Assembly (NCBI GenBank): GCA_030762175.1
Contig: CM060831.1
Location: 140,717,501-140,781,500 of the forward strand
Source of the DNA: Metallyticus violacea
Taxonomy: Eukaryota; Arthropoda; Insecta; Mantodea; Metallyticidae
DNA length: 64,000 nt
Direction: 5' to 3'
Below are positions 1,979 through 50,700 of this stretch, in pieces. Positions within the stretch are counted from its first letter, which is position 1. Every line of letters starts with the position of its first letter. Both the position numbers and the translations under genes were made by a program. The notes under the pieces are model-generated. The model worked only from the letters and a program-made list of their open reading frames with translations. It was not told the DNA's origin and made no database searches.

Positions 1979-2643
1979 AAGGGCCGATCTCACCAATTTC
2001 TTACTAATGGAGAATTAACTAATACCTCCCAATTAAATCTTTTGCATCTCACCAAACTAAATACGAGTCAATTAGCTAATTAGGATTCACACCACGGCCT
2101 TCTGAGTTATAGAAAATCCAGGATTTAAAAGACCATGGACACAGCAAAGAATGCTCTATGCACCATTTATAAAATACCGGAGATCGTTACTCGTTTGTTT
2201 TTCATGACAATTGCACATCGGAATTGGAGGGAAACAAGAGGATTTAATGGTAAGGAAGTTGAGAGCGCTCACTCGATACGCAATTCGTTGGGCCGTTGTC
2301 TAAGTAGTACCAACCTGTGACCATTGCCCATCGAAATTTTACTCAACTGAAACCGCGTTTGGAAATCTGTTTTCTCCATACTATTAAATAAATCTTGTCT
2401 TTCGGAAATTATCCTCATCCGCTTTGGAATAATGAGTCTTCAAATAGCATATTCAACATTTGCCTTGCCATGATGAAAAGTTAATTGAGAATTAACTCGT
2501 TAAATGGCCAAATATACGCCAATTAACTTAATTTGAGTTTAATGAGGGATTAGCATACAATTGTTGATGGTGAGATGCAGTACCCCAATTAAAGGAGAAT
2601 GAAATAGGAGTTAAAAGCTAATTGAGCTCGGTGACATCGGCAC
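1979..2643. mobile_element. MITE-like element with GCCGAT-TCACC termini
   Basis: The left end reads GGGCCGATCTCACC. The right end is the inverse of TGCCGATGTCACC. ACTAA lies just outside both ends and may be the target duplication. Subterminal DNA is rich in CTAATT/AATTAG motifs, and GCATCTCACC recurs inside in inverse orientation. At about 660 bp and without a transposase, this looks like a non-autonomous cut-and-paste element. The superfamily is not certain. Confidence 0.6.
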
Positions 2644-2699
2644 TAACAACTTATAAAACGTCTTTAAAAATTCTCAAAGCCTATTGATCTCTAGATATC

Positions 2700-2966
2700 T
2701 TTTATTATTATTTGATTTATTTAAGGAGACTCTCTAACAGCTCTGGCCATTAGTGTGTCCCATTCAATTCAGGGCGTGAAACTGCCGATAAATTTTGCTT
2801 TGAGATCTCTTCTTTCAGATTTGAGTTTTTTTTTAATGATGCACGAGACCTGCGCTTTACTTCCATTCCGATAGGAACTAAGCCCCCTAAAATTCCATAG
2901 ACTGAGTTTGAACCCGCGACCTTGGATCTACGAGGCAAGTATGGTTTTAACTAGACTACTAGGACT
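2700..2966 (-). mobile_element. SINE family A, degraded copy
   Basis: A diverged minus-strand copy of the tRNA-derived SINE seen better at 3953-4261. The body blocks equivalent to 'GGGCGTGAAAC' and 'AAATTTTGC' are clear. The B-box is still recognisable as the inverse of GGTTCAAACTC. The head lies near 2960 and the tail near 2700. Confidence 0.75.
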
Positions 2967-3362
2967 AATGGCAATAGAACTACCGCATTCCCACATCCTC
3001 ACAATATGTCCGACGAGTAAGGCTGATGCTAGCAAGTGAAGACCCATACAATGCTGACTTAGTGCGGAAGCTGCCTACCCTCACTCGTACTCTGTGAGGA
3101 TCAGGGGGTGAGTTAAACTTATACGGGGCACTTATTTACCATTTTTAAGGCCGGTATAGTTTTTCTGTATGGAGAGATTTCCAAAGCACTGCGACTCTCT
3201 CTCTAGCTAACATCGATAGAATGCTAAATCTATAGGTTTGGTTCCCATCAATGCTCACAGGTCTAGTTTGTCTGTTTAATATCCAAGCGGCACCGTTGCA
3301 GTCTTCCTATTACCCTGCAAGTCCAGGGCAATGTTCAACGTTCAACCATTACTAAGGTCGTC
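2967..3362. other. Spacer between SINE copies
   Basis: No recognisable coding or repeat structure. Confidence 0.5.
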
Positions 3363-3663
3363 GATCCTGGTGGTGTAGTGGTAACTATACTTGCCTTCTA
3401 AACCCAAGATCGCGGGTTCAAACCCGGCCAGGATCGATGGATTTTTTTCGGGCGTAAAATTCTAAGCATGGCTTCCTTCGGAAGGGAAGTAAAGTAAAGT
3501 AAAGTCGTGGGTCCCGTGTCGTACATTTGCGGCACGATAAAGAACCTCAGGCCTGAAAGAAGAGGCCTCTGAGCAAAATTTGTCGGCCGTTTCACGCCCT
3601 GAATTGAATGCGGCGCTGATGGCCTGAGATGTTAAAGAGCGTCCGTAAGTAAAAAAAGAAATA
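3363..3663 (+). mobile_element. SINE family A
   Basis: The tRNA-like head has an A box in TGGTGTAGTGG and a B box in GGTTCAAACCC, and its ends pair (GATCCTGG with CCAGGATC). The family body follows (TTTTTTCGGGCGTAAAA, CTTCCTTCGGAAGGGAAGTAAAG, GGCCTCTGAGCAAAA). This copy has a short extra run of AGTAA repeats inside the body. RNA polymerase III promoter boxes are implied by the tRNA origin. A LINE would supply mobilisation in trans. Confidence 0.9.
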
Positions 3664-3952
3664 ATTACTAAGCATTGGCTCAATGTGGTGGTAGACCAGC
3701 ATGTGTAACTATTATCCGATTAAAATTATGCAAAATAAGTGCTGCTCTGTCCCCATGGGAATTGGACCCTGATCCATAGTAGATACTGTTCAGAGCTGTA
3801 AAGTAGATTTAAGAGTCAACGTTATTGTTATCTTCGCATGATCCCGGATTTTGATGAGAATGGATTGGAATACGGGATCCTAGGAGGATATTTAGATACT
3901 TCTGCCTTGTTCAATTACCGGCAGTTTGTTCCTACGTACCTACGTCCTCCGG

Positions 3953-4261
3953 GTCGGTCCTGGTGGTGTAGTGGTTACCATACTTGCCTCCTATACCCAA
4001 AACGCGGGTTCGAACCCGGCCAGGACCGATGGATTTTTTCGGGCGTAAAAATCGTAGGTATGGCTTCCTTCGGAAGGGAAGTAAAGCCGTGGGTCCCGTG
4101 TCGTACATTTACGGCACGATAAAGAACCTCAAGCCTGAAAGAGAGGCCTCTGAGCAAAATTTGTCGGCCGTTTCACGCCCTGAGTTGAATGGGACGCTGA
4201 TGACCTGAGCTGTTAAAGAGCGTCCTTAAATAAATCAATCAAAAAAAAAAAAAAAAAAAAA
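3953..4261 (+). mobile_element. SINE family A, best preserved copy
   Basis: The head folds like a tRNA: acceptor arms GGTCCTGG and CCAGGACC, A box TGGTGTAGTGGTTACC, B box GGTTCGAACCC. It ends in a run of about 24 A. The insertion is flanked by an exact 11-bp duplication, ACGTCCTCCGG, at 3942-3952 and 4262-4272. That is direct evidence of a target-primed retrotransposition event young enough to keep the duplication intact. Confidence 0.95.
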
Positions 4262-4272
4262 ACGTCCTCCGG

Positions 4273-4562
4273 AAGGAAGGAGGGAGACACTGGGCGGTTG
4301 GGATCGACGGGCTTTGAGGCACGGACGCCGGCGGAGACCCCCTCCACTCCAAAGCGTTTGAGCCTCTCAGAAATTCCAACTCTAAAGACCTCGGGACGGA
4401 AACCTTTTCAAAGCACAAAACATCGCCACACAGCGCCAGTAGATCTCACACTGGCATTTTCGGGCCTGTAAAAGAACCAACGAAGAAATGGGAGAGCGGA
4501 AATATGCATTCCATAATTCGCTTAAGCGACGAGGAGAAAACACGAAAAAATTCAAGGTCGAG
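4273..4562. other. Spacer, GC-richer
   Basis: Somewhat GC-rich DNA with no recognisable gene. It may include the body of the tRNA-like SINE whose head is at 4563-4641. Confidence 0.4.
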
Positions 4563-5511: not shown

Positions 5512-6052
5512 AGCAGCAGCAGTAGTAGTAGTAGTAGTAATAGTATTAGTAGTAGCAGCAATAATAGTAGTAATACTAGTAGTAGTAGTAGTAGTAGTAC
5601 TAGCAGCAGCAGTAGGAGTAATACTAGTAGTAACAGTAGTAGCGGTAGTAGTAGTAGTAGTAATAGTAATACTAGTAGTAGTAGAAGTAGTAGTAGTAGT
5701 AATACTAGTAGTAGTAGTAGTAGTAGTAGCACCAATAGTAGTAGTAGCAGTAGTACTAGTAATACTAGTAGTAACAGTAGTAGCGGTAGTAGTAGTAGTA
5801 ATACTAGTAGTAGTAGTAGTAGCACCAATAGTAGTAGTAGCAGTAGTAGTAATAATAGTAGTAGTAGTAGTAGCAGCAGTAGTAGTAATACTAGTAGTAA
5901 CAGTAGTAGCGGTAGTAGTAGTAATACTAGTAGTAGTAGTAGTAGCAGCAGTAGTAGTAGTAATACTACTAGTAGTAGTTGTAGTAGCAGCAGCAGTAGT
6001 AGTAGTAGTAGTAACTGTAGTAGTAATACTAGTAGTAGTGTAATAGTAATAC

Positions 6053-6093
<41 letters not shown>

Positions 6094-6403
6094 CTAGTAG
6101 TGGTAGCAGCAGTAATAGTAGTAGTAGTAATACTAGTAGCAGTAGCAGCAGTAGTAGTAGTAGTAGTAATACTACTAGTAGTAGTAGTATAAGTAGTAGT
6201 AGCAGCAGTAGTAGTAATACTAGTAGTAGTGTAATAGTAATACTAGTAGTAGTAGTTGCATAGTAGTAGTAATACTAGTAGTAGTTGTAGCAGCAGCAGT
6301 AGTATTAGTAGTAGTAGTAGTAGTTGCATAGTAGTAGTAATACTAGTAGTAGTTGTAGCAGCAGTAGTATTAGTAGTAGTAGTACTAGTAGTAGTAGTAG
6401 TAA

Positions 6404-6442
<39 letters not shown>

Positions 6443-6451
6443 TAGTAGTAT
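5512..6451. repeat. AGT/AGC trinucleotide array, ~940 bp
   Basis: Nearly uninterrupted AGT trinucleotides with AGC, AAT, ACT and GGT variants. Internal segments are duplicated, for example the block with ACTAGTAGTAACAGTAGTAGC. All six frames stay open for long stretches and give polyserine, polyvaline or polyleucine. These are artefacts of the repeat and not genes. Confidence 0.95.
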
Positions 6452-8735: not shown

Positions 8736-10012
8736 CGAGGGTAGGTGCATAAGTTTCCGGCCTCGCCGATAAGGATTATCGCCATCACAAAAGCCTTATC
8801 GCCTTCACAAAATCCTTATCTGGTGTCTTATCTGGTAAGTAAACAATTGCAGCTGTAACTTCTGCTCTCCTGTGTTCAGTTGTTCAGATATAGTTCCATA
8901 AAGAAGGCTATGTGTAGAAGATTATGACAGGTTCAAAATGGAGTATCGACCTGTTATTAAGTTCTTAACAAAAGAAGGACTTACCCCAAATGAAATTAAA
9001 CAGCGATTGGATGGCATATATGGTGAAGGAACCCCCTCATACTTTACCGTAAAAGAATAAGCCAAACTTTTTCAAATGGGTCGAGAAAGCATTGAAGACG
9101 AAGAGCGTGCAGGTCGCCCTTGGAGGTGCTCACTCTGAAAGCATCGCTCTTGTGGAAGGAGAAATTATGGAAGACAGGCGGCTCAAAGTTACAGAAATAC
9201 CAAGGTTGGGTCTTTATAATTATTCACGAACATTTAAACATTAATAAGATTAATGCAAAATGAGTGCCTCAGTCCAAAAGCAGCAACGAGTCATCTGTTG
9301 TCAGGCATTTTTGGAGCTCTGCCAAATGAGAGAGAGAGAGAGAAGTTCTGCAAACCGTTGTTACAGGAGATGAAACTATGGTCCTTTACTATGGTCTCTT
9401 GCCCAAAAGAGAATCAATGAATTGGCGAAAACTTCGCGAAGCTTCGCCTCTATAGGCCAGGGTCACTTAGTCAACCAAGAAGAGCATGCCCACAATATTT
9501 TGGGACTGTGAAGGAAGATTCTTCATTGACTTCAAGAAGAGAAACACACAGTAAATGGGGAGTACTATGCTGGCCTACTGCACAAACTACGTGCTTCAAT
9601 CAAAGAGAAAAGGCGAGGAAAGCTGAGTAGTGGTGTGCGCCCTTTTCACAACAGCGCATCTGTGCACACAGTTCTTGTTGCAGAGGAAGCTGAGAAGAAA
9701 TGTGACTTCAAGGAGATGGGCCATCCACCCTACAGCCCATATCTAACTCCCAGTAACTATTTCCTCTTCTCAAAACTCAAAGGACCTTGGAGGAAGGAAA
9801 TGCAAGTGTGACGAAGAAGTGATGGATGCTGTTTATGCCCATTTTACAGACAAGACTTCCGACTATTTTCGGGGGGGGGGGAATTGAAATGTTAATTCAA
9901 AGATGTGCGAAGTGTATTGAAATAAAGGGCAACTATATTGAAAAGTGAAATATAGTTTTTGTCTTTATCATACATAGAAAATAGAGGCTGGGAACTTATG
10001 GACCTATCCTGG
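8736..10012 (+). mobile_element. Full-length mariner, copy 1
   Basis: Bounded by TA on both sides (8734-8735 and 10013-10014). Inverted termini read GGTAGGTGCATAAGTTTCC on the left and GGATAGGTCCATAAGTTCCC for the inverse of the right end. The length of 1,277 bp is typical for mariner. Inside is a broken transposase frame starting near 8938. It inserted into the Penelope-like element, so it is the younger of the two. Confidence 0.9.
8938..9811 (+). pseudogene. Mariner transposase, SETMAR-like, broken
   Basis: The N-terminus (MEYRPVIKFLTKEG) is the first helix-turn-helix of mariner transposases. Further on come 'VTGDETMV' (first catalytic Asp), 'FWDCEGRFFIDF' (second Asp region) and a 'YSPYLTPSNYF' stretch where the third Asp is normally seen in SPDL-PSDYF. 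That last motif has lost both acidic residues. Frameshifts and stops, for example near 9058 (TAA), interrupt the frame. The normal role is cut-and-paste transposition at TA sites. This copy cannot encode an active enzyme. Confidence 0.85.
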
Positions 10013-10101
10013 TATATTCAGCAGTGTCTAGAGCCTTCTCCTTGTAAAGTAATGCATAAAGAAATTGGCTATTACAGGTCTTAATGGACTTACCATTGCT
10101 A

Positions 10102-20280: not shown

Positions 20281-21552
20281 GAGGGTGATTTACAACAACG
20301 TATTATGAAATTAATTTCAATTTGCTTCCAAAAATAAGTTAATTTCGACAATGTTAACACAGCATGACAATATTGTAATATAAAATTAATGGAATGATAT
20401 ATGAAGTTCATGAAGATGAACATTGTTGGCTAATATTTTGAAAATAATTTTATCGTAAATATTATTAAATTTAATTTCAATAATTTAAAATTATTTATTT
20501 TTTAAAACTATAATTGTAGGTATTTTTAGGTTTCGGCGTCCTATTTAGCCCTTTTTAGGTTTCGTAAGAATCAACTATGCGACTGCCATAATAAAGAAAC
20601 GGATAATTATGTTAAAATGTCACAGTTAGCTACAAAGGAATAAAATAGTTTAAAACTCAAGAATCCGGGCCCTAGTCATCACCTTTGCAACTGAAATTGT
20701 ACAACTAGGAGAATATCGCAGGCTTTAATTCACAAACTTTAACATTAATAATAATTATTTCGTAATGCTTACATTCGGAATTATTATTGGACTTTCGCTG
20801 AAATGATAGTTTAATTATTTAAAAATAGCAAATAAATATTCTCGGTTAGCATGCAATTATGCCATCCTCTTAATCACCTAGAGACATCTAAAGAAGAATA
20901 CAAGTGGTAGAGTCAATTTCCTGACATGCGCACTTAGAATTCGATCCCGTGAAATACCCAAGCCATTCCTACTGTGGTTTAACTAAAAGGTATGAACGTC
21001 GCAAGAGTTTGTCTCCATGATTTTCCTTTATTCAAATATTTCAAGGCTACCTTATTGAACGTCCAAATTGGTGAACCGCGCGCCCATCTTCAACATATAT
21101 TACAAAATTAATATACTGTCGACACAGCGTAGAATAAAATATATTACAACACTACAAAGAAAGTGCCATTGTATACGATCTTCGGTTATCTCTCTTTCTT
21201 CTTTTGTAAGGGCAACCCTTACTTCTAAAAACTTGTGAGAGACTCGCATGAGCTAGAATATTTATTTAAATAATTTACATAGAATTTATTGCTAATTTGT
21301 TTGCATTAAACCCACTAGCGCGTCACTGTGTTCTGTCTACACATCTCATTCAGGTATCTTATTTTGTACTGTCTGCTCACTGTTTATTCTCTGTTCACAT
21401 AACATATATCCATGTTTTTAACTTTTCCACTCCGTTTCTATCCCTTTTATATTTTCTGGTATCACTGTAAAGCGTTACATTATTGTTTATTATTTTTTTA
21501 ATATCCCTTACTCCTTACCAAATAGTAAAATAGAACTAACTGCATATAAGAT
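20281..21552. other. AT-rich spacer
   Basis: About 1.3 kb without recognised genes or repeats. The frame at 20214-20423 overlaps the Penelope hairpin edge and is not supported. Confidence 0.6.
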
Positions 21553-21554
21553 AC

Positions 21555-22655
21555 AAGGGTAGATCCATACGTTTCCGGCCTAACCATTTTATAGCTATGA
21601 TAAATACAAAAACTTTTTTTTCACTTTTCAATATAGTTACCTTTTATTCCAATGCACTTCTCACATATTTGAATTAACGTTTCAAACCCCCCCCCCCCCG
21701 AAAACAGTCAGAAGCCTTGTCTGCAAAATGGGCATGAACAGCATCCATCACTTCTTCATCACACTTACATTTCCTTCCTCGAAGGTCCTTCGAGTTTTGA
21801 GAAATAGTCACTGGGAGTTAGATCTGGGCTGTAGAGTGGATGGTCGATTTCCTTGAAGTCACATTTCTTCTCAGCTTCCTCTGCAACAAGAACTGTGTGC
21901 ACAGATGCGCTGTTGTGAAAAGGGCGCACACCACCACTCAGCTTCCCTCGCCTTTTCTCTTTGATTGAAGCACGTAGTCTGTGCAGTAGGCCAGCATAGT
22001 ACTCCCCATTTACTGTGATGTTCCTCTCCTTGATGTCAATGAAGAGTATTCCTTCACAGTCCCAAAAGATTGTGGTCATGTTCTTCTTGGTTGACTGAAT
22101 GACCTTGGCCTTTGGAGGCGTTTACGCCACTCCATCGATCTTCTTTTGGACAAGGGATCATAGTAGAGAACCACAGTTTCATCTCCTGTAACAATGGTAT
22201 GCAGAACTTCTCTCTCCTTACCACGGCAGAGTTCCAAAAATGCCTGATAAAAGATGACTCGTTGCTGCTTTTGGACCGAGGAAAGAAGTATAGGCACTCA
22301 TCTTGCACTAACCTTATTCATGTTTAAATGTTCATGAATAATTCGAAGGACTGTAGTTTTAGAATGTCCGAAAAAGTTTGGACCATTCTTTTACGGTAGA
22401 ATATGAGGGAGATGCTCCCCATATACAATAGCTGTTTAATTTCGTTTGGAGTAAGTCCTTCTTTTGTGAACTTAATAACATATCGATGTTCCATTTTGAA
22501 CCTGTCACAATCTTGTACACACAGCTTTCTTTATGCAAGTATATCTGAACAACTGAACTCAGAGGAGCGGAAGTTATAGCTGCAATTATTTACTTAACAG
22601 ATAAGGTTGTGACACCATACAAGGGTTTTGTAAAGGCGATAATTATTATCGAAAG
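21555..22655 (-). mobile_element. Mariner copy 2, 5' TIR lost
   Basis: Same family as the copy at 8736-10012, on the opposite strand. The 3' terminus at 21555-21590 keeps GTAGATCCATACGTTTCCGG. The 5' untranslated part can be followed to about 22655, but the outer 5' terminal repeat is missing. The C10 run at 21690-21700 corresponds to a G10 run near 9850 in copy 1, so the homopolymer was probably present in the shared ancestor. Confidence 0.85.
21765..22495 (-). pseudogene. Mariner transposase, SETMAR-like, frameshifted
   Basis: Two overlapping minus-strand frames hold the protein. The first (22076-22297) has 'QQRVIFYQAFLELC' and 'TIVTGDETVVLYYDP', which contains the first catalytic Asp. The second (21765-22079) has 'TIFWDCEGILFIDI' with the second Asp and 'YSPDLTPSDYF' with the third. 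The usual HDNA motif is altered to HNSAS. The N-terminal part near 22495 is readable in a third frame. The frame changes and the incomplete 5' end make it inactive. Confidence 0.88.
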
Positions 22656-38690: not shown

Positions 38691-38773
38691 ATATTTTCTC
38701 TCCCCCTTTTTTGACCTCTAGGCGATTAACAAGGCAGGAAATGAGTCCCCAGAAATGCCTCAGTAGTATATAT

Positions 38774-38922
38774 CCCTTTTCCGGTGATAAATTGAAATGT
38801 AAATGATATCATAAGTTGGGGATGTGGGGTGAGGTGGTTTGGTGGGCGTGGTTGGTGGGGGTGGAAGTGACGAGGTACAATTTTGATATCAAAGCTCTTC
38901 AATTTAAATCACCGGAAAAGGG
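38774..38922. repeat. Long inverted repeat at viral element end
   Basis: Left arm 38774-38810 and right arm 38885-38922. CCCTTTTCCGGTGAT is identical in both, then AAATTGAA and GATATC also match in place. The ~74-bp loop is G/T-rich on the plus strand (GGGGTGAGGTGGTTTGGTGG). It lies just downstream of the last viral gene and could be a terminal or origin hairpin. That role is inference. Confidence 0.65.
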
Positions 38923-38927
38923 GTATT

Positions 38928-39310
38928 TTTATTATACAGAAAATTAACATATACATTTTTAATGTGTTACAAAAAGAATTGGTTTAAATGCAATTAAAAT
39001 ACAAAATGATGTCACTGAATATTTTTATTGTATTTTTTTTATACAAATGTGAAAATTAACATACATTTAATGGCGGTCTTTTTTTTTTTACAAAAAATGG
39101 AGGTTTTACCACTTTAAAAAATGAAGGTTTTACACTTTACAAAAATGGCGGTGCAATTCACACATCACTAATGGGATTTACTCCTTTATGGTATGATGGC
39201 GCTGGTTATTTTTATTATACAAATGTGAAAATTAACATGGATCCCTTAATAAAAATGGCGGTGCAGTTCACACATTACAGGCGGTTTTTACCCTTTATGG
39301 TGCTACACAC
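38928..39310. repeat. Short imperfect repeats at viral element end
   Basis: TATACAAATGTGAAAATTAA occurs near 39040 and 39217, with a shorter version near 38933. AAAATGGCGGTGCA-TTCACACAT occurs near 39141 and 39253. They form diverged direct repeats of about 110-180 bp. The last viral reading frame (ends 39275) runs into them. Confidence 0.6.
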
Positions 39311-39778
39311 AGGCGGCTTTACAAAAATTGCGTCGGTGGTGGATTTACAAAAATGTATACTAAAATATGTAGTATATGTCTTTTTAACAAACGACACTTC
39401 ACTGTCTTCGTCGCTGCGGCTTTCCTCCTCCTCGTGTGGTGTGGTGACGCAGGTGAGTGACATGTGGGAAAAGTTGTTGAGGAGTTCCTGGACCGACGGA
39501 ATGACGATGGGGACAACGAAATCGCTAATGTCGATGGTTCCCAGGTAGATGGTGCAGCGTGTGTCTATGCCGTAGTGGCCTGACTTCCACGATGTCGCAG
39601 TTGGTTGCTAATTTGACAGTGACAGTTTTGTCTTCGCCAAAGAAGGAGATTTCTGTTGAGATGAGGTTGATGTTTGCAGGATACTCACTGCTTGTTGTTA
39701 CGTGAATTTGGTTGTCAAAACTAGTTTGACAAATACATTGTTGCCTACCCCCCCCACCGGATCTGTTTGACACGCCAT
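39275..39778 (-). pseudogene. Viral-element gene 7, unknown, frameshifted
   Basis: Starts 5 nt after the stop of the gene at 39784-40095, at an ATG at 39776-39778. A run of eight G soon follows, and the frame beginning at that ATG stops within about 30 codons. Beta-rich sequence ('ANINLISTEISFFGEDKTVTV') continues in a second frame (39525-39773). Then, after a shift near 39585, a third frame leads to an acidic tail ('HEEEESRSDEDSE') and ends at 39275. So at least two frame breaks interrupt what looks like one gene of about 165 codons. I cannot assign a function. The size and beta content would suit a small capsid or accessory protein, but that is a guess. Confidence 0.5.
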
Positions 39779-39783
39779 GTTGT

Positions 39784-40095
39784 TTATTTCGGGGTAAACT
39801 TCAATGCGTGTCTCCTCCGGTAGCCGTTTCTGAGAACCTCTTCACCCTGGTACATGATGTAAACGTCGAACGAGTTGAGCTGGTTGATGAGTTCTGCAGA
39901 AAGATTGCTAAATCTTGTGGGTAGAAAAACTTCTTTCCCGTTTTCGAGGCGAACAAGCGTTCTGGGTCCGTGCTTTGTGGATATGTTCCGGACCCCTATC
40001 ACGACGTATGGTACGCTTGGCTGTAACGTGGACACTGATACATAATCAGAGTTGATCGCTACTGTAGCTAGTTGGCGTAAAGCGTCGTTGATCAT
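39784..40095 (-). CDS. Viral-element gene 6, compact beta-rich protein
   Basis: An intact 103-residue frame. Its ATG overlaps the TGA of the upstream gene in ATGA (40092-40095). Residues about 24-60 ('LQPSVPYVVIGVRNIST' then 'RTLVRLENGKEVFLPTRFSNL') show alternating hydrophobic strands with a conserved-looking FLP-R-SNL motif. Short proteins of this pattern accompany virus-derived DNA in invertebrate genomes. The fold looks OB-like to me, hinting at single-stranded DNA binding, but no motif proves it. It is the best-preserved frame of the block, though expression is unknown. Confidence 0.55.
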   Translation of the reverse strand: MINDALRQLATVAINSDYVSVSTLQPSVPYVVIGVRNISTKHGPRTLVRLENGKEVFLPTRFSNLSAELINQLNSFDVYIMYQGEEVLRNGYRRRHALKFTPK

Positions 40096-40343
40096 ATTGA
40101 CTTCTCTGCAGAACTTTTGCTACTGACACACATCGGACATTGTTTGGTGAGAGGGGAAGGACCTTCAATGTGGGTAATGGTGGTCGGGAGGTGGTAGTGA
40201 TGGTTGCAGCAGCGGTAAGGAGCGTAAATTCCTTTAGCTTCAGGTGTAAGCCCCGCCCATACAGCGTCCACATTCACTGGTGAATGATGCATAAAGATGG
40301 CGTTTCCCTCCACGGCTAGTAGATGACGTTCATTTGGTTCCAT
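40092..40343 (-). CDS. Viral-element gene 5, small Cys/His protein
   Basis: An 83-residue frame with an ATG start at 40341-40343, just downstream of the repeat-rich region. Residues about 43-72 contain 'YRCCNHHYHLP' and 'KQCPMC'. That is a CC-x-HH ... C-x2-C arrangement which could bind zinc. No family recognised. The stop overlaps the next start by 4 nt, so the two genes look co-transcribed. Two other open frames overlap this region (40046-40273 among them) and I treat them as shadows. Confidence 0.5.
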   Translation of the reverse strand: MEPNERHLLAVEGNAIFMHHSPVNVDAVWAGLTPEAKGIYAPYRCCNHHYHLPTTITHIEGPSPLTKQCPMCVSSKSSAEKSI

Positions 40344-40627
40344 CGCTGTGAGACGTCAACCATTTTTCAGAAACTTTATCACAAGGTCCTTGGCTTGCAG
40401 GAGACTTGTCATAAGTGTGCAAGCTCACCTTGCCTGGACTTGTTCGTGACGTCAAAATGTGCGTGTTTGGACTTGTTCATCAGGGTGCAGTTGCTTGTAC
40501 TTGTTCGTGACGTCATCACGGTGCAGGTGCAACCTCGCCTTGAACTTGTTTGGACATGTCCATGGCGTCCTGGTCCAACTCCCTAATGAATATTGGTTTT
40601 AGAAAACACACCTTCTCTAGGAACACT
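40344..40627 (-). promoter_or_regulatory. Repeat-rich control region with TGACGTCA sites
   Basis: A 284-bp non-coding gap between viral genes 4 and 5. ACTTGTTCGTGACGTCA occurs twice (ending 40454 and 40515). Half-copies of ACTTGTT are at about 40471 and 40543. TGACGTCA at 40447-40454 and 40508-40515 is the palindromic CRE/ATF-type binding site. A near copy, AGACGTCA, is at 40351-40358. The position ahead of genes 5-7 suggests an enhancer or promoter. That is inference. Confidence 0.5.
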
Positions 40628-41059
40628 CTATTCGGTGTATTTCACTTTTCCCTCGGAAACGTGGGCGTGAAGCAAATACTTGCGATAGGCTGCTATTTGA
40701 TTTTGTTCTTCGAACTCTTCTTTCTTCTTGTGATAGATGTTGTCGGTGACCATACGCTGTAAGCTTTCTAGTGTCCTCCATTCCAGAATACTCAGCGATA
40801 TACAGCGACCTTCCATTTTGATGATAATATTTTGTGCGCCAAATAAACGTTTAAAAAATATGGATAGTCGGTTGGTTAACTGCCACTCTCTTAGATGAAG
40901 AGTCAAGCTCTGTATCTTCGGCATCACCTCTGCAAGTTTCTGCCACTCTGTCGAACCCAAAACCACCGCGCTGCGTCGTCTACCAACGTTAACCACGATC
41001 TTGTGTGGAGACTTAGGTGAAAACCAAACGGCTGCAAACTTGGACTGCTTGCTGTTCAA
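40628..41059 (-). pseudogene. Viral-element gene 4, protein with two PC4-like motifs
   Basis: A 143-residue frame. Two segments share one pattern: residues 20-50 ('KIVVNVGRRRSAVVL' then 'EWQKLAEVMPKI') and residues 77-104 ('NIIIKMEGRCISLS' then 'EWRTLESLQRMV'). The pattern, hydrophobic strand then G-R then L-S-x-x-EW-x-x-L, resembles the C-terminal half of the PC4 single-stranded-DNA-binding fold. If right, the protein would be a DNA-binding factor. No good ATG opens the frame: the listed start is TTG, and an ATG just upstream (about 41073) lies in another frame. The start is therefore probably broken by an indel. Homology is inferred from pattern only. Confidence 0.5.
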
Positions 41060-41281
41060 GAAGAAAACATCTCCATGTCACTGTAAAAACAAGAACGCCC
41101 CTTATGTAGCACACTATTTCATTCGTCAATTAACCACACATAATGAAGCGACTTACCTGTTCATCTCTCTCGGAGCAACTGGTAGAGCGGATCGTGTATT
41201 GCCACATGCGCCTTCTAAAAAAATACCGGAATTAGCAACATAAATGTATCAGTGTATATTCATACAGAATTTGTATCAATA
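41060..41281. other. Gap between viral protease and gene 4
   Basis: About 220 bp with no good frame on the coding strand. It may hold the decayed start of gene 4 or a promoter. Confidence 0.4.
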
Positions 41282-41773
41282 CTAGCCTTTAACGATACGC
41301 ACCTCTGATGTGTAGTTTGTGAGCATCCGCCAAGATGTAGGTTTTTTCAATGACGTCATCATTGTGATTAAAATCACTTTGCTAAATTTTGAAAAGAATT
41401 TCTCCTTACACAGGTTTTGGAAGCGGTGAGATAGGTAAGCAACGACATAATGGCCACAAGTGGTGCTGACATCGCCTTGGAACCTTCTAGTGTTGTGAGT
41501 CCATCTTGTACCACAACATCGATTTAAAAAATTTAGAATTTCCCACAAAAGAGGTTCTACCATAGCTATCGAAATATTCACCCCGTCGTTCTTTGCAACA
41601 AAGATACAGACCCATTGTTTCCCTGATTTCGTGCTTGGATCAGTGTTAATGAGAACTGCTATGGGAAGCTGTCTATTATGCAAATTTATCGACGACAATT
41701 GGTCGCAAGTGTACACGCCTAAAAAGTGTGGGGTACATTTATACAGAAGTCGGTGTATTTGCAGCGTATTCAT
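41282..41773 (-). pseudogene. Adenain-like cysteine protease of viral element
   Basis: A 163-residue frame matching the adenovirus-type maturation protease (family C5) found in Polintons and adintoviruses, which cleaves capsid proteins during assembly. 'GVYTCDQL' near residues 19-26 and 'LINTDPSTKSGKQWV' lead to the place of the catalytic His, where Gln53 stands before Trp54. 'FQGDVSTTCGHYVV' holds Cys106 with Gln99 seven residues ahead, the spacing expected for nucleophile and oxyanion Gln. The usual aspartate motif is not in this frame: EYFDSYG is encoded at 41559-41579 in a different frame. At least two compensating shifts have therefore damaged the middle. The ATG overlaps the capsid gene stop as ATGA. 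Confidence 0.85.
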
Positions 41774-43056
41774 AATACCAAAATTGCCCTGTTAGTATCA
41801 ATTTCTATAGTGCGATGTACTTCTCCCATCATCAACAGATTGATAGGTTCTGGAGTTTGAATTTTAAAACCTATACTTATAGACACAGTGCCGTACCGTT
41901 GCCCTGAAATGTAAGACTCGTTAGCGCTCATATCGGCTGTTAGATCAAATGCCATAATGGGATAGCCGTGAGAATATTGATGTCTGGAAATTGAATGCTC
42001 TTCGTCCTTAAAGTGTATACCGAGGCTATCTTGAAGAGTTGGAAAACATTGGAGAAAGTGACCGGCACCAAAATTGGGTTGTAGAAGTTGTGAGGGAAAA
42101 GGCTGTCCGATCATATACAGTTGAAAAGAATTTATTTTAAAATGTAAATTGTACGGGTTTTTGTTAATGTTACTTTTGTATGCCTGGTCGGCAACCATTG
42201 CCACAACCACCCTTCGGGGTATTTGCCCTATGAAAACGTCATTGAAAGTCATATTACTGACCCCCTTTGGAATGTTGAGAGCGTGAAATCCTACATCTTT
42301 GAGATGGTACTTTGCATTACTCTTTGCTAACACCGCCTGATGTGCAAGCTTGATGGTCGGCGACGGTCTCACAGCTTTCAAAATCAGTCTAGCAGACTGA
42401 ATCTCTGTGAAAGCTTTAAAGTCCTTTGTATCTGAAAAGAGATGAAAGTTGGGTGAAGAAGATGAGAGTTTAATGGTAACCCTCACATTGTTCAAGAACA
42501 GGTTTTCCTAAATAAAGAGTGCATTGGAAAGATTATCCATTAACTGCACAATTTTGCTTCCTTTGGTATAGTCGTTACGCCACTTAATTCAATCATTTGC
42601 TACATACGCGTCCATCATTCCTCCCTTGTCCTTTTTCCAAAGCGAGGACTCTAGTCTGCTGTTCATGGCATCTTCCGAATAATTGAGCGACGTTTCAATG
42701 TAAGTTCTATAGGGGTAGCCTGGTTGAGGCATGGAAACTGTGTCATTGTTGAGTGATACTTCCAATTGCTGAAACAAGTAATGTAGAGTATTGTTTACAA
42801 ATGTAATCTGTTTGTCCTCTTTCAAGTCGTTTCCACTGTCATCAACTATTCGCACGAACAGCTCAAGTACTACATAAGTCATGTCAAGGTAATGGTCTGC
42901 ATTGCCCGAGTAATGAAATGTGATGGGGGCGTTTTTCATAAGTGTATTTTGAGGGTTTAGAGAAATGTAACCGCACTCCTCCGCGTTCATTTGAACGGGC
43001 AAGTGTTTAAAGATGTCTAATTCTGAACTCATGTGCACCGACGATTCGTCAGCCAT
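41770..43056 (-). pseudogene. Major capsid protein, F54H12.2-like (Polinton/adintovirus), two stops
   Basis: A single frame of about 428 codons from the ATG at 43054-43056 to TGA at 41770-41772, broken only by in-frame TGA (42589-42591) and TAG (42508-42510). The N-terminal part has 'SELDIFKHLPVQ' and 'GNADHYLDMTYV'. The C-terminal part has 'IPRRVVVAMVADQAYKSNIN' and 'GYPIMAFDLTAD'. Both match the double-jelly-roll capsid proteins annotated in invertebrate genomes as F54H12.2-like. They form the virion shell in Polinton/Maverick and adintovirus elements. Length is normal for the family. Everything outside the stops looks well kept, so inactivation seems recent. The start overlaps the upstream gene stop (TAATG). 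Confidence 0.87.
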
Positions 43057-43426
43057 TATGAAAATACGTCCACCACCTTACGTCTTCGGCGTTTAATCTT
43101 AAACTTATTGTATATTTCACCGTTCGGGCGCTTTAATAGACCAGTGTCTATAATAAAGTCTATCTTTACATCAGCTTTCCTCTTCAAATTAGTTCCCGCC
43201 TAGTCTTTAACGATTCCTTTGGTGGTATCCCCGAACTTGCAGCATCTACAAGCACATTGGCCCTCATTTTCAATGCCTCTTTACCGATAGCTTTCACACC
43301 GCTCTTGAAAAACGGTGGCACGTTTTTGAAAAGATCACCGAGAGTAGAGAACAAGCCGCTACCCTTTTGATAACGCTTGCCTCTGTACAGGAGAAAATCT
43401 TGATTGTATAATGCTCCTCCATCTTA
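43056..43426 (-). pseudogene. Minor capsid/core protein, adenovirus pX/pVI-like, frameshifted
   Basis: The first part (43184-43423) reads 'YRGKRYQKGSGLFSTLGDLF', then 'PFFKSGVKAIGKEALK', then 'DAASSGIP'. This is the G-rich/amphipathic pattern of the small protein encoded just ahead of the capsid gene in Polinton-like viruses and comparable with adenovirus pX or pVI. It meets TGA at 43184-43186. The C-terminal part, ending in a basic KRRRRK tail, continues in another frame and stops at TAA (43056-43058), overlapping the capsid ATG by one base. The start is also damaged: ATG at 43421-43423 lies in a different frame. The role would be DNA condensation or membrane lysis during entry. Confidence 0.75.
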
Positions 43427-43755: not shown

Positions 43756-45520
43756 GTTATCGCTTGCTGTAGACATGGATATAGCTATAGATACCGCTAT
43801 CGCTGTCACTATAATTATCGCTATCACTATGGATGTTGCTATTGCCTTCGCTATGGATATCGTTATCGCTGTCACTATGGATGTCGCTACAGATGCCGCT
43901 GTCGCTTAATCGCTATCGCTTATATCACTCTCACTGTCTCCATGGATATCATTATCGCTGCCGCTCTGGCTATCGCTATTGATATGGATGTCGCTATCGC
44001 TGTCGGTATGGATATCACTATCGCTATAACAATGGATATCGCTATCGCTATGGATATCGCTATCGCTATGGATATCGCTATCGCTATAGATGTCGCTATT
44101 GCTATGGATGTCGTTATCGCTATGGATATCGCTATCGCTATGGATGTCGCTATGGATATTGCTATCGCTATGGATGTCGCTGTTGCTATGGATCTCGCTA
44201 TCGCTATGAATGTCGCTATCGCTATGGATGTCGCTGTCGATATGGATGTTGCTATCGCTAAGGATGTCGCTGTCGCTATGGATATGGCTATCGCTTGCTG
44301 TAGACATGGATATAGCTATAGATGCCGCTATCGCTGTCACTATATTTATAGCTATCACTATGGATGTTGCTATTGCCTTCGCTATGGATATCGTTATCGC
44401 TGTCACTATGGATGTCGCTACAGATGTCGCTGTCGCTTAATCGCTATCGCTTATATCACTCTCGCTATCTCCATGGTTATCATTATGGATGTCGCTATGG
44501 CTATCGCTATTGATATGGATGTCGCTATTTCTGTTGCTATGGATATCGCTGTTGCTATGGATATCGCTATCGCTATGGATATCGCTATCGCTATGGATCT
44601 CGCTATCGCTAAGGATGTCGCTATGGATATCGCTATCGCTATGGATATCGCTATCGCTGTGGATGTCGCTGTCGCTATGGATGTCGCTATCGTTATGGAT
44701 ATCGCTATCGCTAAGGATGTCGCTATCGCTAAGGATGTCGCTATGGATATCGCTATCGCTATGGATATCGCTATCGCTAAGGATGTCGCTATCGCTAAGG
44801 ATGTCGCTATCGCTATGGATGTCGCTGTCGCTATGGCTATCGCTATGCATAACGCTATCGCTATGATGTCGCTATCGCTAAGGACATCGCTATCGCTATG
44901 GATGTCGCTGTCGCTATGGTTATCGCTATGCATAACGCTATCGCTATGATGTCGCTATCGCTATGGTTGTCGCTACGAATATCGCTATCGGTATGGATGT
45001 CGCTATCGCTGTAACTATTGATATCGCTATCGCTGTTACTATGGATGTCGCTATATGCCGCTATCGCTTAATATGTCACTCTCGCTATCTGCTTGGATAT
45101 CGCTATTGCTACTAATGTCTCTATTGCTGTTGCTATAGCTATCGCCATCGCTGTCACTCACTACTGAGGTTGTTATCGCTTATTATGTCACTCTCGCCAT
45201 TTCCAAGGATATCACTATCGCTACTAATGCCTATATCGCCGTTGCTATGGATATCGCTATCACTGTCACTATGGATGGCGCTATCGCTTAATATGTCACT
45301 CTCGCTATCTGCTTGGATATCGCTATTGCTACTAATGTCTCTATCGCTGTTGCTATAGCTATCGCCATCGCTGTCACTCGCTACTGAGGTTGTTATCGCT
45401 TATTATGTCACTCTCGCCATTTCCAAGGATATCACTATCGCTACTAATGCCTATATCGCCGTTGCTATGGATATCGCTATCACTGTCACTATGGATGGCG
45501 CTATCGCTTAATGTGTCACT
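43756..45520. repeat. GATATCGCTATCGCTATG-type array with higher-order duplications
   Basis: About 1.77 kb built from 6-nt GCTATC/GGATAT/GGATGT units. Two larger repeats are visible. The block beginning GCTTGCTGTAGACATGG at 43762 returns at 44293 (period 531). A 220-bp block at 45081-45300 is repeated at 45301-45520 with few changes. Open frames run through it on both strands (for example 43942-44949 plus and 43906-44406 minus), giving MDIAIA or SDSDIH repeats. They follow from the period-6 sequence. Confidence 0.95.
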
Positions 45521-46677
45521 CTTCCTATCTCTATGGATATCACTGCCGCTTTCGCTCATTTATTTCCGACTCATACTCACTTCCACTCTCTTAGAAACGC
45601 ACTCACTCTCAGAAACTTAATCGCTCCCTCAGACACATTTCTTTCAGACACCCACTTACTCTTTCAGATTCTTTCACTCTTTTAGACGCTCATGCTCTGA
45701 GACACTGATCGCCTACTCTCTCAATCACTCTTAGACCCAAACTCATTCACTGTTCACTCGTTCTCATATACTGACTTATGCATTTTCTTCCTTACTAATT
45801 TCGTAAAGCGGTTGCTTTAATTGGTTTTGTGTTAAGTGAATGTAAAGTATTGTAGATACGTAAACTTTTTCTTTGAGACCATTAGAGGAGAAAATTGAAA
45901 ATAAAAATGGGTTCGACTAATTTTAAGTCTTTCTTTGAATTAAACTAATTTCTAAAGTATAGAAAGTGTACAGTGATTTCCGCAGATAGGCTTCATCCTG
46001 CAGATTTCAGACAAGTTTTTTGGCATTAATAATACAGGATTTTTTTTTAAACAGGTGCGTTGCTACGATGTTTATTAAATTCTCTTTCTCTCTTCGGTAA
46101 TACAAATTCGAGTATCAATTCGAGTTTTGTGGTTAAGATTCTAGAGCTTCAGATCTGTTTTCACCACCAGCAGTAGCAGCCGTAAAAGTGTGCAGCTCAG
46201 GTTGTTTTTGCCGCGAGTTTACTGAAAAAATATAAACATCGATGATATAACTGCCCAAGGACACCCACGTAGATGGGCAGAAAGTCACAAACTCAAATTG
46301 TGAACATTTATGTGAAGAGTAAAAAAAATTACATTTTTCAACTGAAAACAAGCGACTATTTTATTCTGTAATGCAATGTTATCATCGCTAAACAAATACC
46401 TCATACTATCTCTAATGTCAGATTACAATTAATTTGAAATATATTCTGTTTTATTAAAAACGACGTATACATTGTGAATAACATATTTTACTCTGGTTTT
46501 TATAAACTGAAATAACAAATCTCAAGGCATAACATGCTCTATGGGTGCAAATTACTGTCAGATAAAATACCTTAAGTGACAGATACCAAATTGGAGATAC
46601 CCGAAATAATGATTTAACAAGTAATCTTCGTCTAAAACCATTTTATAAGAAATCAAAAAAGTGAAAGATTGTAAAAA

Positions 46678-46717
<40 letters not shown>

Positions 46718-46825
46718 TTTTTTTTTATTATTATGTTTTAAAACATTTTCTTGTTTTCTCTTATGTTACTACCTCAACAATTCATAACAACGAAGATTTA
46801 AACAGAAAATGAATGAATGCAGCGA
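45521..46825. other. Spacer, repeat-derived then AT-rich
   Basis: To about 45780 the DNA is rich in CTCACTCT-type motifs, probably a decayed flank of the array. An ATT microsatellite is at about 46679-46719. No gene recognised. Confidence 0.5.
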
Positions 46826-46905
46826 TCTTACAGGATTTGAAACAGGGACCTCTGGATTTGCAGGCAAACAAACTTGACCACAAGTCCACGAAGTCGGTCA
46901 ATGTA
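46826..46905 (-). mobile_element. tRNA-like sequence, probable SINE head
   Basis: On the minus strand an A-box-like TGTGGTCAAGTTTG is followed by a B-box-like TGTTTCAAATCC about 40 nt later. It is short and diverged and does not match SINE A or B. Confidence 0.4.
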
Positions 46906-47205
46906 TTCTCTTATATTTCTATTTAGGCTTTATGAATATGAACTTTACGCCCTTTTAAAAAGTGATTTAAGACAATAGAGGTTATACAACTGGTAACGAA
47001 ATCAGTAACTTGACTTTCGTCATATTATGTCATATACCCCCACCGAACGAGGAGTTTCCGGTAGAAGGCTGATCGCAGTCATCAGTCCTGGTAGAAGGAT
47101 GATCACGGCCCTCACCGTTACTAATAGAAGATTTATCATCTTTGTTGACGACCCCGTCTAAAATTGACGTGAAGCCGTCAACTAGGCTGCACTCATGTCC
47201 ACTGC
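46906..47205. other. Spacer
   Basis: GAGTTTCCGGTAGAAGGCTG at 47051-47070 returns in altered form at 47326-47345, so this DNA may belong with the repeat to its right. Confidence 0.4.
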
Positions 47206-47300
47206 GTGCTCTCTTGAGAGTAAGCTTGTTCCCACACCGGGCTCCCTTGAGAATAAGTTTGTCCCCGCTACCCGCTACGTGCTCTCTTGACGGCGGAAGA
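47206..47300. repeat. Short tandem repeat, ~33-40-bp units
   Basis: GCTCTCTTGAGAGTAAGCTT, then GCTCCCTTGAGAATAAGTTT, then GCTCTCTTGACGG begin successive units. The minus-strand frame at 47030-47380 is open through them and has no known domain. Confidence 0.6.
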
Positions 47301-47371
47301 CACCTCACCAACGATACCAGACGAGAAGTTTCCGGTAGGAAGCTGTTCACCACCATTATTTCTAGAAGTTT

Positions 47372-47771
47372 CATTCCCAAAGAGAAAAGGCGAGGAAAGC
47401 TGAGTGGTGGTGTGCGCCTTTTTCACGACAACGCGCCTTGCACACAGCTCTTGTTGCAAAGGGAGTTGTGCAGAAATGTGGCTTTAAGGAGATCGACTAT
47501 CCATCCTATAGCCCAGATGTAGTTCCCAGTGACTATTTCCTGTTCTCAAAACTCAAGAAGGAAATTTAAGTGTGACGAAGAAGTGATGGATGCTGTTTAT
47601 GCCCGTTTTGCACACAGGGCTTCTGACTATTTTTGGAGGGTGGAATTGAAATATTAATTCAAAGATGTGAGAAGTGTATTGCCATAAAGAGTAAATATAT
47701 TGAAAATTGAAATATAGATTTTGTCTTTATCATACCTAAAAATGGTTAGGCCCGAAATTTATGGACCTACT
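47372..47771 (+). mobile_element. Mariner copy 3, 5'-truncated
   Basis: From AAAGAGAAAAGGCGAGGAAA onward it matches the 3' third of the mariners at 8736-10012 and 21555-22655: the HDNA region (here 'LFHDNAPCTQL'), a YSPDVVPSDYF-type block near 47505-47540 and the 3' untranslated part. The right end is the terminus ATGGACCTACTCACGTA. The 5' two thirds are missing, and the junction abuts the unrelated repeat at 47206-47345. Confidence 0.85.
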
Positions 47772-50700
47772 CACGTAACACTATTCTGAATCTTGTTTCA
47801 CTTCACAACTGACTTCTTCGGTCAGTCCACAGTGCCAATCATCCAGCCATCGACATCAATGAGACGCACTGCTAGTTAGTGGGCCTTAGCACAAAAATAA
47901 ACATCGTGACATCCATGTTTCGTAAGGGAAACAAAACAATACCTTGGCTCTTAAGGTAAAAGACTAAGAAGAAAAACAAAACAAAACAAAAGAAAGCAAA
48001 CAATAGGCTGCCAGGAAACAAAACATCTGACTCAAATGACATGACAGCGTCTAGATGTCTACGGATAGCAAAAAACATCGATGATGTTGCTGCTGAAGAC
48101 GAAGCTGAATATTCCCTTTATAACTGACTTATTCAAGGATAAATATGAACAGGAAATATTTCTTTGATTTCTTGAAACTTGCTGCATTACTCAGACAGAC
48201 AAATTCGTGTGACAAAGTGGTCTAGAAGGCTGAAAGCAATTGAAGATATAGTTCACAAAATTCCATAGTATTTAATTATTGTAACACGTGTTGTAATAAA
48301 GTCTTGTATTTTGAATTGAGAAATGATAGGACGAAATTAAGAACAGTTTCCTAGTAATTTAGATTTTGCTTTTTTAAAGTTTATTTTAATAATATCTACT
48401 ATATAGGACATCTGAAATCGAACATACGTTTAAAAATATAGCATTTTATTAGAGTTACTTAATTTTTTTAATGTTCTACAAAATATAAAGTCCTTATTCC
48501 TAATACATTTTGTTATAATAATTGTTACATATTTGGCATTTTAAGAAAAATTGAAAATAAAACTTTTAAAATATATCTGGAACTATACACTACAGAAACA
48601 CAAATTAAAAACTTACGCCATTTCCTATTTCAACCTTTTTTAATGCTTTATAATCAATATTTATTTACTTACCCAAAGTATTGTTGTTTCATTATAACGC
48701 AACACTTTGAAATATTGAAATGTACATTAAAATGTTCTAGTTTAAAATTAGAAAAATAATCAGATTTCTAAAATATGGTCCGGTATCAGAGAAAGCTTAC
48801 AATAATTAAAACTTCATATAAATATTAATTTTAGCATGTGGTGAAGAGTTGTGGGTATGGAACACATCGCGGAGTTCTTGTTGTGCTGTAGTTAACTGTT
48901 TCCCAATCATCCCTTTCACATTCATATACCATGCACTCAATGGAGAAACTGGAAGTAAATTGAAACTACTTCGTTTAATTCCGGGTTCATTTTTTCGCTT
49001 CATATTAAAGCTACCAGTTATCTTATGCTGTATAAGTAATGAATTATGATGCATTGTAAAACTATTTTAAAGTGACCGCAAGATGGTGGTACAAATTAAT
49101 TCCAAAATCAACCCTTTAGGTCTGTATAATATTTAATAAAAAAAACCAGGAAGCTTCCACTTAATATTAATTTGATTTATACATTCCGAAACATTTAAGA
49201 CTTACTTGCTTCGAAAGTTAAAAGTATTTTAACTTAATAGCATATAAACTATTGATGATAAATTGCCCATATTTTGCATTTCTATAAGTTTGGGTTTAAT
49301 AGAAATATAAAAATAATTTTGCTCTCAGATTTCACAGGAACTATATCATAATGACGTCCATGTGAACATGGATAACAACATTCCTTTTATGCTTATATGA
49401 ATAGAATTGCAAAGAAATCTAAATATTTATTTATTTTAACATTAAGTAGCTGTACTTTAGTGTTCATTTTAGCTTACTTGACATCAATTTTCTCCTCTAT
49501 TCATATTTATTCTCCCACTTATTCTCCTGCAAAGGTATTGTCTGCATTTCATTAATTCCTTCCATTTTCTTTTCTTTTGTTTCCCTGTTCTTTTATTCCT
49601 AGTTGGGAGCCATTCTAAAGTCTTCTTTGGCATTTTTCATCCATCCTCTTGACACGCCCAAACGGAAGGAGAATAATCCTTTAATTTCTTCTCTTGTTCT
49701 CATTAAGAATGTAAATGTTATGTTATAAAATATATTTCTGCCATTTTCTTTAATATAGCTTTAGGAAATTAATTTGAAGAGCTCGCCAGTATTTTTCATT
49801 GGCATTGCTATAGACAAACAACTTAAATTAACAACTTCTATCCAGGTTCTAGGCATAGTTGACGATTGATGAGCAACTGAATCGATCTGTCAGATCTGTT
49901 CGCTCTAGAAATTGGGGGGGGGGGGGCTTTCTGCAGTAATTAAACATTTATACCACTGGTCAATAGTGAAAATATTTTTCACTTGTCAATACTTATGTCA
50001 TATTGATTTCAATGTGTTAAAAGCAAATATGACATTTAAAATGCTTAGCTATGCAGCGGTTTTTTTTATATAATGGTGGCGATTGATTACTGGATTGTGT
50101 ATTTTAATTAACTTTTAAGTAATTAAAATTGTCGGAAGAGAATATTTTTGAATGCTTGGATATTAAGGATTGGTTGCTTGACGGGTATCTCAGGGATATC
50201 TTCTTCTTCCTCACCGATAATTACCCCCTGAGTTACAATTGTTCGAACTCTTGATGGAATTTTTGTTATCCGTAGATAACAGGGAAAGGAATTTTACCAG
50301 ACTTTGATGAGGGAATGAATAGATTAGCTGTATTTCGTGATGAACTGCAGTTTGTTGTTCCATGTCTATTGTGCTGCGATGCCTGTCACTTTTGCATAAT
50401 CATTAGTATTTCATTACGACGTCACAAGCGACGTTTTGGCCGTGGCACTTTTTCTGAGGCACAGTTCGATATTAACACGAAAGTTTACAGCTCAAAAGTT
50501 TTAAACTTCACAAACTTACTGGTATGGCATGCCTGATTATTTACTTAACTCACCCATACTACATGATGTTGAACTAGTAAATTCACCCGGCACTCTCTCG
50601 CGGGAAACTTAGCAGAGTTGAACACTGGACTGTGTCCCCAAGATAAGAACTGAAAGACTGGCTTCGTTGGTCAAGGATACGACTTCCACCCCTCCAGCAA

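What the first reader, a model, noticed from the sequence alone, without database searches (positions are those of the whole stretch)
38774..43426. Endogenous Polinton/adintovirus-like gene block
Seven genes on one strand, with a recognisable capsid protein, adenain-like protease and pX-like protein, form a virus-derived block in otherwise transposon-filled insect-like DNA. Genes 4-7 downstream of the protease have no firm family, so the lineage may carry undescribed accessory genes. No polymerase, integrase or ATPase is seen within the window. Either the element is truncated on the right by the simple-sequence array, or it belongs to a small capsid-encoding lineage.
Basis: partly seen in the sequence, partly recalled or inferred. 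Interest (0 to 1): 0.9.

Follow-up and report, generated by a model that had tools for sequence, protein, structure and literature searches.

The report
Old cut-down Polinton virus-transposon copy
This stretch of an arthropod genome holds the decayed remains of a virus-like transposon (a Polinton) that kept its shell genes but lost its copying genes, in a genome where full-length relatives have recently multiplied.

Summary
Window 38,762-43,421 (minus strand) holds seven decayed Polinton genes: pX-like, double-jelly-roll capsid, adenain-type protease and four accessory genes. Its left end is exactly a Polinton terminus (38,762). The element continues through the simple-sequence array to about 47,378, so the array lies inside it. 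The same junction occurs at five loci, and a 1.4-kb segment specific to this lineage at seven. Two of the five have a terminus at each end and flanking duplications (6/6 and 5/6 bases). The window copy is therefore an old member of a non-autonomous Polinton lineage that lost polymerase, ATPase, integrase and the penton candidate but kept the capsid block. The capsid or protease frames are broken in all five.

The same arthropod genome carries complete Polintons of about 15 kb. All 13 copies with both ends located have perfect 6-bp duplications. Of 150 scored capsid matches, 142 have full-length frames and 127 share one score; six polymerase genes differ by 0-12 bases in 4,296. The capsid gene is strongly constrained between full-length subfamilies (omega 0.07-0.09) and much less so in the derivative (0.41-0.89). 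This is a new variant of a known kind.

The parts
38762..39030 (-). Terminal repeat region at the 3' end of the element; terminus AGTAGTATATATCCC at 38,762-38,776
   Evidence: Exact terminus of the full-length copies; 38,762-39,029 matches L006 at 81%; alignment to the C4 and C17 derivatives begins within two bases of it
39344..39778 (-). g174, accessory gene remnant, two stops
   Evidence: tblastn 49%
39784..40095 (-). g102, accessory gene, frame open, function unknown
   Evidence: 88% to intact copies; 41% to a second Polinton family
40098..40388 (-). g114, accessory gene remnant, one stop
   Evidence: tblastn 79%
40525..41071 (-). g208, accessory gene remnant in two frames
   Evidence: tblastn 82% and 57%; 26% to a second family
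41269..41773 (-). Adenain-type cysteine protease, broken; catalytic His position reads Gln and the Asp region is out of frame
   Evidence: tblastn 83%; alignment; profile match to ASFV S273R E 3.7e-8
41776..43056 (-). Major capsid protein gene (double jelly-roll), two in-frame stops
   Evidence: 88.6% to an intact capsid; fold searches
43059..43420 (-). pX-like gene, first 14 codons missing, one frame change
   Evidence: tblastn 84% and 81%
43421..43421 (.). Junction: homology to full-length copies stops here; the same junction is at four other loci
43815..45544 (.). Simple-sequence array (units of 12 to 112 bp) inside the element
   Evidence: TRF; arrays of related units at the same place in all five junction loci
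45640..47034 (.). Lineage-specific segment, long matches at seven loci only; origin unknown
   Evidence: no Pfam match in its longest frames
47141..47188 (-). DNA stub of the 5' part of the polymerase gene
   Evidence: 81% over 48 bp to L010 1941-1988
47189..47378 (.). Last stretch shared with the C4 and C17 derivatives; right terminus not found in the window

Best explanation
The window holds a decayed member of an old, non-autonomous Polinton lineage. A Polinton close to subfamily B of this genome lost the interval from near the start of its polymerase gene to codon 14 of its pX-like gene (polymerase, ATPase, integrase, penton candidate). It carries instead a simple-sequence array and about 1.4 kb of lineage-specific DNA, and it kept both termini. 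Inferred: polymerase and integrase supplied in trans by full-length relatives copied it from its termini and inserted it elsewhere; later mutation broke its capsid, protease and accessory genes. Shown: the shared junction, termini and duplications at other loci, absence of the replication genes at the sensitivity used, broken frames, and full-length relatives that could serve as helpers.
For: Terminus at 38,762. Junction shared by five loci at 88-90% and lineage-specific segment at seven. C4 (10,921 bp) has both termini and a 6/6 duplication, C17 (9,682 bp) both termini and 5/6. Similarity to C4 and C17 begins within two bases of the terminus and not in the flank. No PolB, ATPase, integrase or 356-aa gene in the right parts of the five loci by tblastn at E <= 0.01, only DNA stubs. 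Full-length helpers exist.
Against: Only two of the five junction loci have both ends, and one of these has a 5/6 duplication; C5 and C13 are rearranged or truncated on the left, and C13 holds a second, inverted capsid-protease piece. The window's own right terminus was not found, so its own insertion is seen from one end only. Divergence between copies is 10-20%, so the order of events is blurred. No transposition was observed.
Confidence: 0.82

Rival explanations
1. Satellite: the derivative was not a passenger but was selected for its own capsid and protease while borrowing polymerase, packaging ATPase and integrase from a helper Polinton.
For: The whole block pX-capsid-protease-accessory genes was kept while the replication genes were lost. 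Some omega values are well under 1 (window against C13 0.41; C13 against subfamily B 0.28-0.31).
Against: Omega among derivative copies is 0.41-0.89 against 0.07-0.09 between full-length subfamilies. Capsid or protease frames are broken in all five copies. The penton candidate and ATPase are missing.
Confidence: 0.1
2. Simple truncation: one full-length Polinton was cut by the array, and the other loci are segmental duplications of that fragment or assembly artefacts.
For: Two of the other junction loci lack a left terminus in the stretch examined (C5, C13). The array is hard to assemble.
Against: C4 and C17 have termini at both ends and their own flanking duplications, and alignment with the window stops at the terminus. 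Junction and segment recur at 88-90% identity on different contigs.
Confidence: 0.06
3. Domesticated capsid: the host kept this copy of the capsid block for its own use.
For: One accessory frame, g102, is still open.
Against: The capsid has two stops, the protease is broken and has lost its catalytic His; other copies are decayed as well.
Confidence: 0.02

Closest known systems
Polinton/Maverick elements, VSR-bearing 'group I' type
   Same: Full-length relatives here have PolB with a VSR-like stretch of about 140 aa, chromo-integrase, capsid, protease, termini beginning AGTAGT, 6-bp duplications and about 15 kb length; vertebrate Mavericks are reported with (AGT)2 end motifs, 6-bp duplications and 12.7-24.6 kb (PMC8097293 passages)
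   Different: The host is an arthropod, whereas one paper places insect elements in group II without the VSR stretch (PMC10328495 passage). The VSR match is weak. The window copy itself lacks polymerase, ATPase and integrase
Non-autonomous Mavericks/Polintons
   Same: Internal loss of enzyme genes with termini kept; such versions are stated to exist (PMC6327564 passage)
   Different: This one keeps the capsid-protease block and carries a simple-sequence array and a lineage-specific segment
Maverick copy in Cotesia bracovirus
   Same: Best capsid match: R9XLG5 of Cotesia sesamiae Mombasa bracovirus, 29% identity, E 3e-20; a rearranged Maverick copy is reported in Cotesia congregata bracovirus circle 31 (PMC5704228 passage)
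   Different: The paper names another Cotesia species; that R9XLG5 lies in a Maverick was not tested
Adintoviruses (MELD viruses)
   Same: Capsid model matches a MELD virus protein (rank 5) and the capsid of Drosophila-associated adintovirus 3 (rank 34) in BFVD
   Different: Only 12-13% identity, no tree was made, no particle is known, and the founding paper was not held

Membership tests
Polinton/Maverick (full-length relatives in this genome) | Family B DNA polymerase | tested here: met
   PF03175 E 8.7e-50; open over 1,432 aa in 6 of 8 front halves
Polinton/Maverick (full-length relatives in this genome) | RVE-family integrase | tested here: met
   PF00665 E 5.4e-14 and chromodomain PF00385 E 5.4e-9
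Polinton/Maverick (full-length relatives in this genome) | FtsK-like packaging ATPase | tested here: inconclusive
   P-loop matches all below Pfam cut-offs: AAA_14 E 5.6e-4, Adeno_IVa2 E 0.0072, FtsK E 0.064
Polinton/Maverick (full-length relatives in this genome) | Adenovirus-like cysteine protease | tested here: met
   ASFV S273R E 5.4e-5 for the intact protein, 3.7e-8 for a four-row profile
Polinton/Maverick (full-length relatives in this genome) | Double-jelly-roll major capsid protein | tested here: met
   Fold searches E 3e-20 (BFVD) and 3e-10 (Sputnik, PDB), but from a weak model (pLDDT 46) with low TM-scores; no sequence match in Pfam or PDB
Polinton/Maverick (full-length relatives in this genome) | Penton (single jelly-roll) gene near the capsid gene | tested here: inconclusive
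   A 356-aa gene lies one gene upstream, the place given in PMC4028283; no family or PDB match of weight
[quoted passage not shown]
   Inverted match of about 0.83-0.9 kb between the two ends, perfect duplication in 13 of 13 copies with both ends located, 16 tried; 14,758-15,304 bp
Polinton/Maverick (window copy) | Own polymerase, integrase and ATPase | tested here: not met
   None by blastn or tblastn in the window apart from a 48-bp DNA stub; hence a non-autonomous derivative
Polinton/Maverick (window copy) | Two termini with target duplication | tested here: inconclusive
   One terminus at 38,762; the other not found in the window; sister loci C4 and C17 have both
Adintoviridae | Placement with adintoviruses in a tree; evidence of particles | not tested
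   No reference set at hand; protein database switched off

The most novel reading that the evidence does not exclude
The derivative was a satellite of full-length Polintons: a mobile unit that made its own capsid and protease while borrowing polymerase and integrase, with the array or the lineage-specific segment favouring its copying or packaging, so that animal genomes hold Polinton helper-satellite pairs.
Probability: 0.1. Interest if true: 0.75.

Novelty: new variant of a known kind. Interest (0 to 1): 0.5.

Why it matters
This arthropod genome holds many near-identical Polintons with open capsid frames: 142 of 150 scored capsid matches. A survey of vertebrates found at most 38 intact elements in one genome (PMC8097293 passages; its test of intactness covered all core genes, mine for the 150 only the capsid). 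Whether Polintons still form particles in animals is an open question, and strong constraint on the capsid gene says that it mattered in the active lineage. The derivative lineage gives an internal contrast: the same capsid gene without its own polymerase, evolving under much weaker constraint. A VSR-type polymerase in an arthropod element, if confirmed, would qualify the statement that insect elements lack it.

Tried and rejected
Relatives in IMG/VR viral contigs: two capsid pieces, a degenerate capsid motif and the integrase gave none (4 of 8 scans used; close relatives only). Pfam, PHROGs and NCBIfam gave nothing significant for the window's own frames. PDB sequence searches with the capsid gave only chance-level matches. 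A single-sequence fold of the window's capsid piece was useless (pLDDT 32.5). Truncation by the array was rejected. A host gene cluster was rejected, because copies with termini and target duplications lie at many sites. Frames g91 and g83 were set aside as possibly spurious because they overlap other frames. Papers: PMC4028283, part 1 of 4 and passages; passages only of PMC10328495, PMC11071308, PMC6431247, PMC8097293, PMC6327564 and PMC5704228; all others seen only in listings. The listings showed no title or abstract start describing an array-bearing, capsid-keeping Polinton derivative; this is no claim that none is in print.
Full report
What is there. On the minus strand of window 38,762-43,421 lie seven genes that match, in order, the rear part of Polintons elsewhere in the same genome: pX-like, capsid, protease, g208, g114, g102 and g174. 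The left boundary is exact: the element begins at 38,762 with AGTAGTATATATCCC, the terminus of the full-length copies. The capsid gene has two in-frame stops, the pX-like gene lacks its start and has a frame change, the protease frame is broken, and its catalytic His position reads Gln. Only g102 is still open from end to end.

Full-length relatives. The window lies at G000:C2:140717501-140781500 of a 2.32-Gb genome with 123 Chitin_bind_4 matches among 129 candidates, hence an arthropod. The capsid piece had 2,064 first-look candidates; 150 were scored and matched, the window's own place included; by my count of the rows 127 share one score (468.3 bits), 142 lie in an open frame of at least 436 aa and 8 in shorter ones. 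The first look keeps the best only, so these are lower bounds and say nothing on how many weaker copies are broken. Thirteen copies with both ends located measure 14,758-15,304 bp, and all 13 have a perfect 6-bp duplication; in 3 of the 16 tried the front end was not found in the stretch. In six copies compared, the first 380 bp of the two ends differ by 0-6 substitutions, with 0-26 gap columns. Gene order from the front: PolB, P-loop ATPase-like (215 aa), a 122-aa protein, integrase with chromodomain (351), a 356-aa protein, pX-like (138), capsid (429), protease (172), g208, g91, g114, g83, g102, g174 (pX and capsid lengths from L003, the rest from L010 and L018). PolB is open over 1,432 aa in 6 of 8 front halves; those six differ by 0-12 substitutions in 4,296 positions, three of the 15 pairs by none. 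In the other two, L009 and L016, it is broken or absent. This is a recent burst.

Protein identities. PolB: PF03175 E 8.7e-50; integrase: PF00665 E 5.4e-14; chromodomain E 5.4e-9. Between the two PolB blocks sits a stretch of about 140 aa with a weak VSR match (PDB 1odg E 5.7e-4; Pfam E 0.0037, below its cut-off). Protease: ASFV S273R, E 5.4e-5 and 3.7e-8 with a four-row profile that includes the window copy; His, Asp, Gln and Cys are placed as in adenain (the adenain correspondence is recalled). Capsid: a weak model (pLDDT 46). Its best viral match is a bracovirus protein (29% identity, E 3e-20), followed by adomavirus LO7, a MELD virus and virophages, with some unnamed or otherwise named rows lower down; all 50 PDB rows shown are chains of Sputnik, mavirus, iridovirus, Faustovirus, PBCV-1 and adenovirus capsids. 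TM-scores are low (mostly 0.3 or less), as expected from a poor model, so the fold rests on E-values and on the consistency of the list. The ATPase matches are below cut-offs, and the penton reading of the 356-aa protein rests on position alone (PMC4028283).

The derivative lineage. Homology to full-length copies stops at 43,421, inside the pX-like gene. A 351-bp query across this point matches over its full length at five loci: the window, and C5, C4, C13 and C17 at 88-90% (40 of 575 candidates scored). In all five an array of related units begins 0.4-0.6 kb beyond the junction. A query beyond the array (45,640-47,140) gives long matches at seven loci and otherwise short ones, nearly all to its last 100 bp (40 of 420 scored). 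C4 and C17 have a terminus at each end, C4 with a 6/6 and C17 with a 5/6 duplication; they measure 10,921 and 9,682 bp. Alignment of the window with C4 and C17 begins within two bases of the terminus. No PolB, ATPase, integrase or 356-aa gene is detectable in the right parts of the five at E <= 0.01; short DNA stubs show that the lost interval reached from the start of the PolB gene to pX. In the window the right terminus is missing: homology ends at about 47,378, where a dispersed repeat begins. Capsid or protease frames are broken in all five as far as they are present.

Selection and age. Capsid omega between subfamily A (one copy, L005) and subfamily B is 0.07-0.09 (dN 0.013-0.020, dS 0.20-0.22). 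Within B it is 0.27-0.82 at dS of 0.02-0.03, and several B copies are partly broken. Among the five derivative copies omega is 0.41-0.89, and derivative against B 0.28-0.73, with dS of 0.12-0.16, except C4 with 0.36-0.38. C4 aligns in overlapping frames with many stops, so its values are unsafe. So the capsid was strongly constrained in the full-length lineage and much less so in the derivative, which is nearest to subfamily B. The method does not correct for transition bias and skips stops, so values under 1 do not by themselves prove selection.

Other families. The PolB search shows open frames of several other lengths. Three loci from it were examined. L053 and L054 have the order integrase, 356-aa-like gene, pX, capsid, protease; L055, whose capsid is 91% identical to that of L053, was fetched too short to show the first two. 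Their capsids are 58-64% identical to the main one. In 1.9 kb behind the L053 protease, g102 (41%) and g208 (26%) have counterparts and the other four accessory queries none.

Mechanism. Most likely the derivative arose by internal loss, kept its termini, was copied and inserted by polymerase and integrase of full-length relatives, and then decayed. Mobilisation in trans is inferred, not shown. The capsid block was most likely a passenger; a satellite with its own selected capsid is not excluded.

Limits. The protein database was off, the genome search was busy in 34 tries, counts are lower bounds, and no tree against published Polintons could be made.

Noticed in passing
G000, e.g. C14:4263159, C6:49517790, C1:94145952 (places): Several further Polinton families, with polymerase frames of about 1,315, 1,274 and 1,463 aa, many of them open.
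   Followed up: partly
L049 (C13 derivative locus), 2636-4376: A second capsid-protease piece in inverted orientation to the right of the junction, so this locus looks palindromic or nested.
   Followed up: no
L007, 3140-3714: The accessory-gene part lies inverted next to the pX-like end of a Polinton copy.
   Followed up: no
window 47378-47777, also 8736-10015 and 21546-22651: Copies of a dispersed mariner-like repeat; the copy at 21,768-22,121 has a Transposase_1 match (E 2.5e-14). One copy adjoins the right end of the element.
   Followed up: partly
L010 residues 858-956 of PolB: Weak VSR-like endonuclease match between the two polymerase blocks, in an arthropod element.
   Followed up: partly
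window 5521-6450: A trinucleotide array of about 0.9 kb.
   Followed up: no
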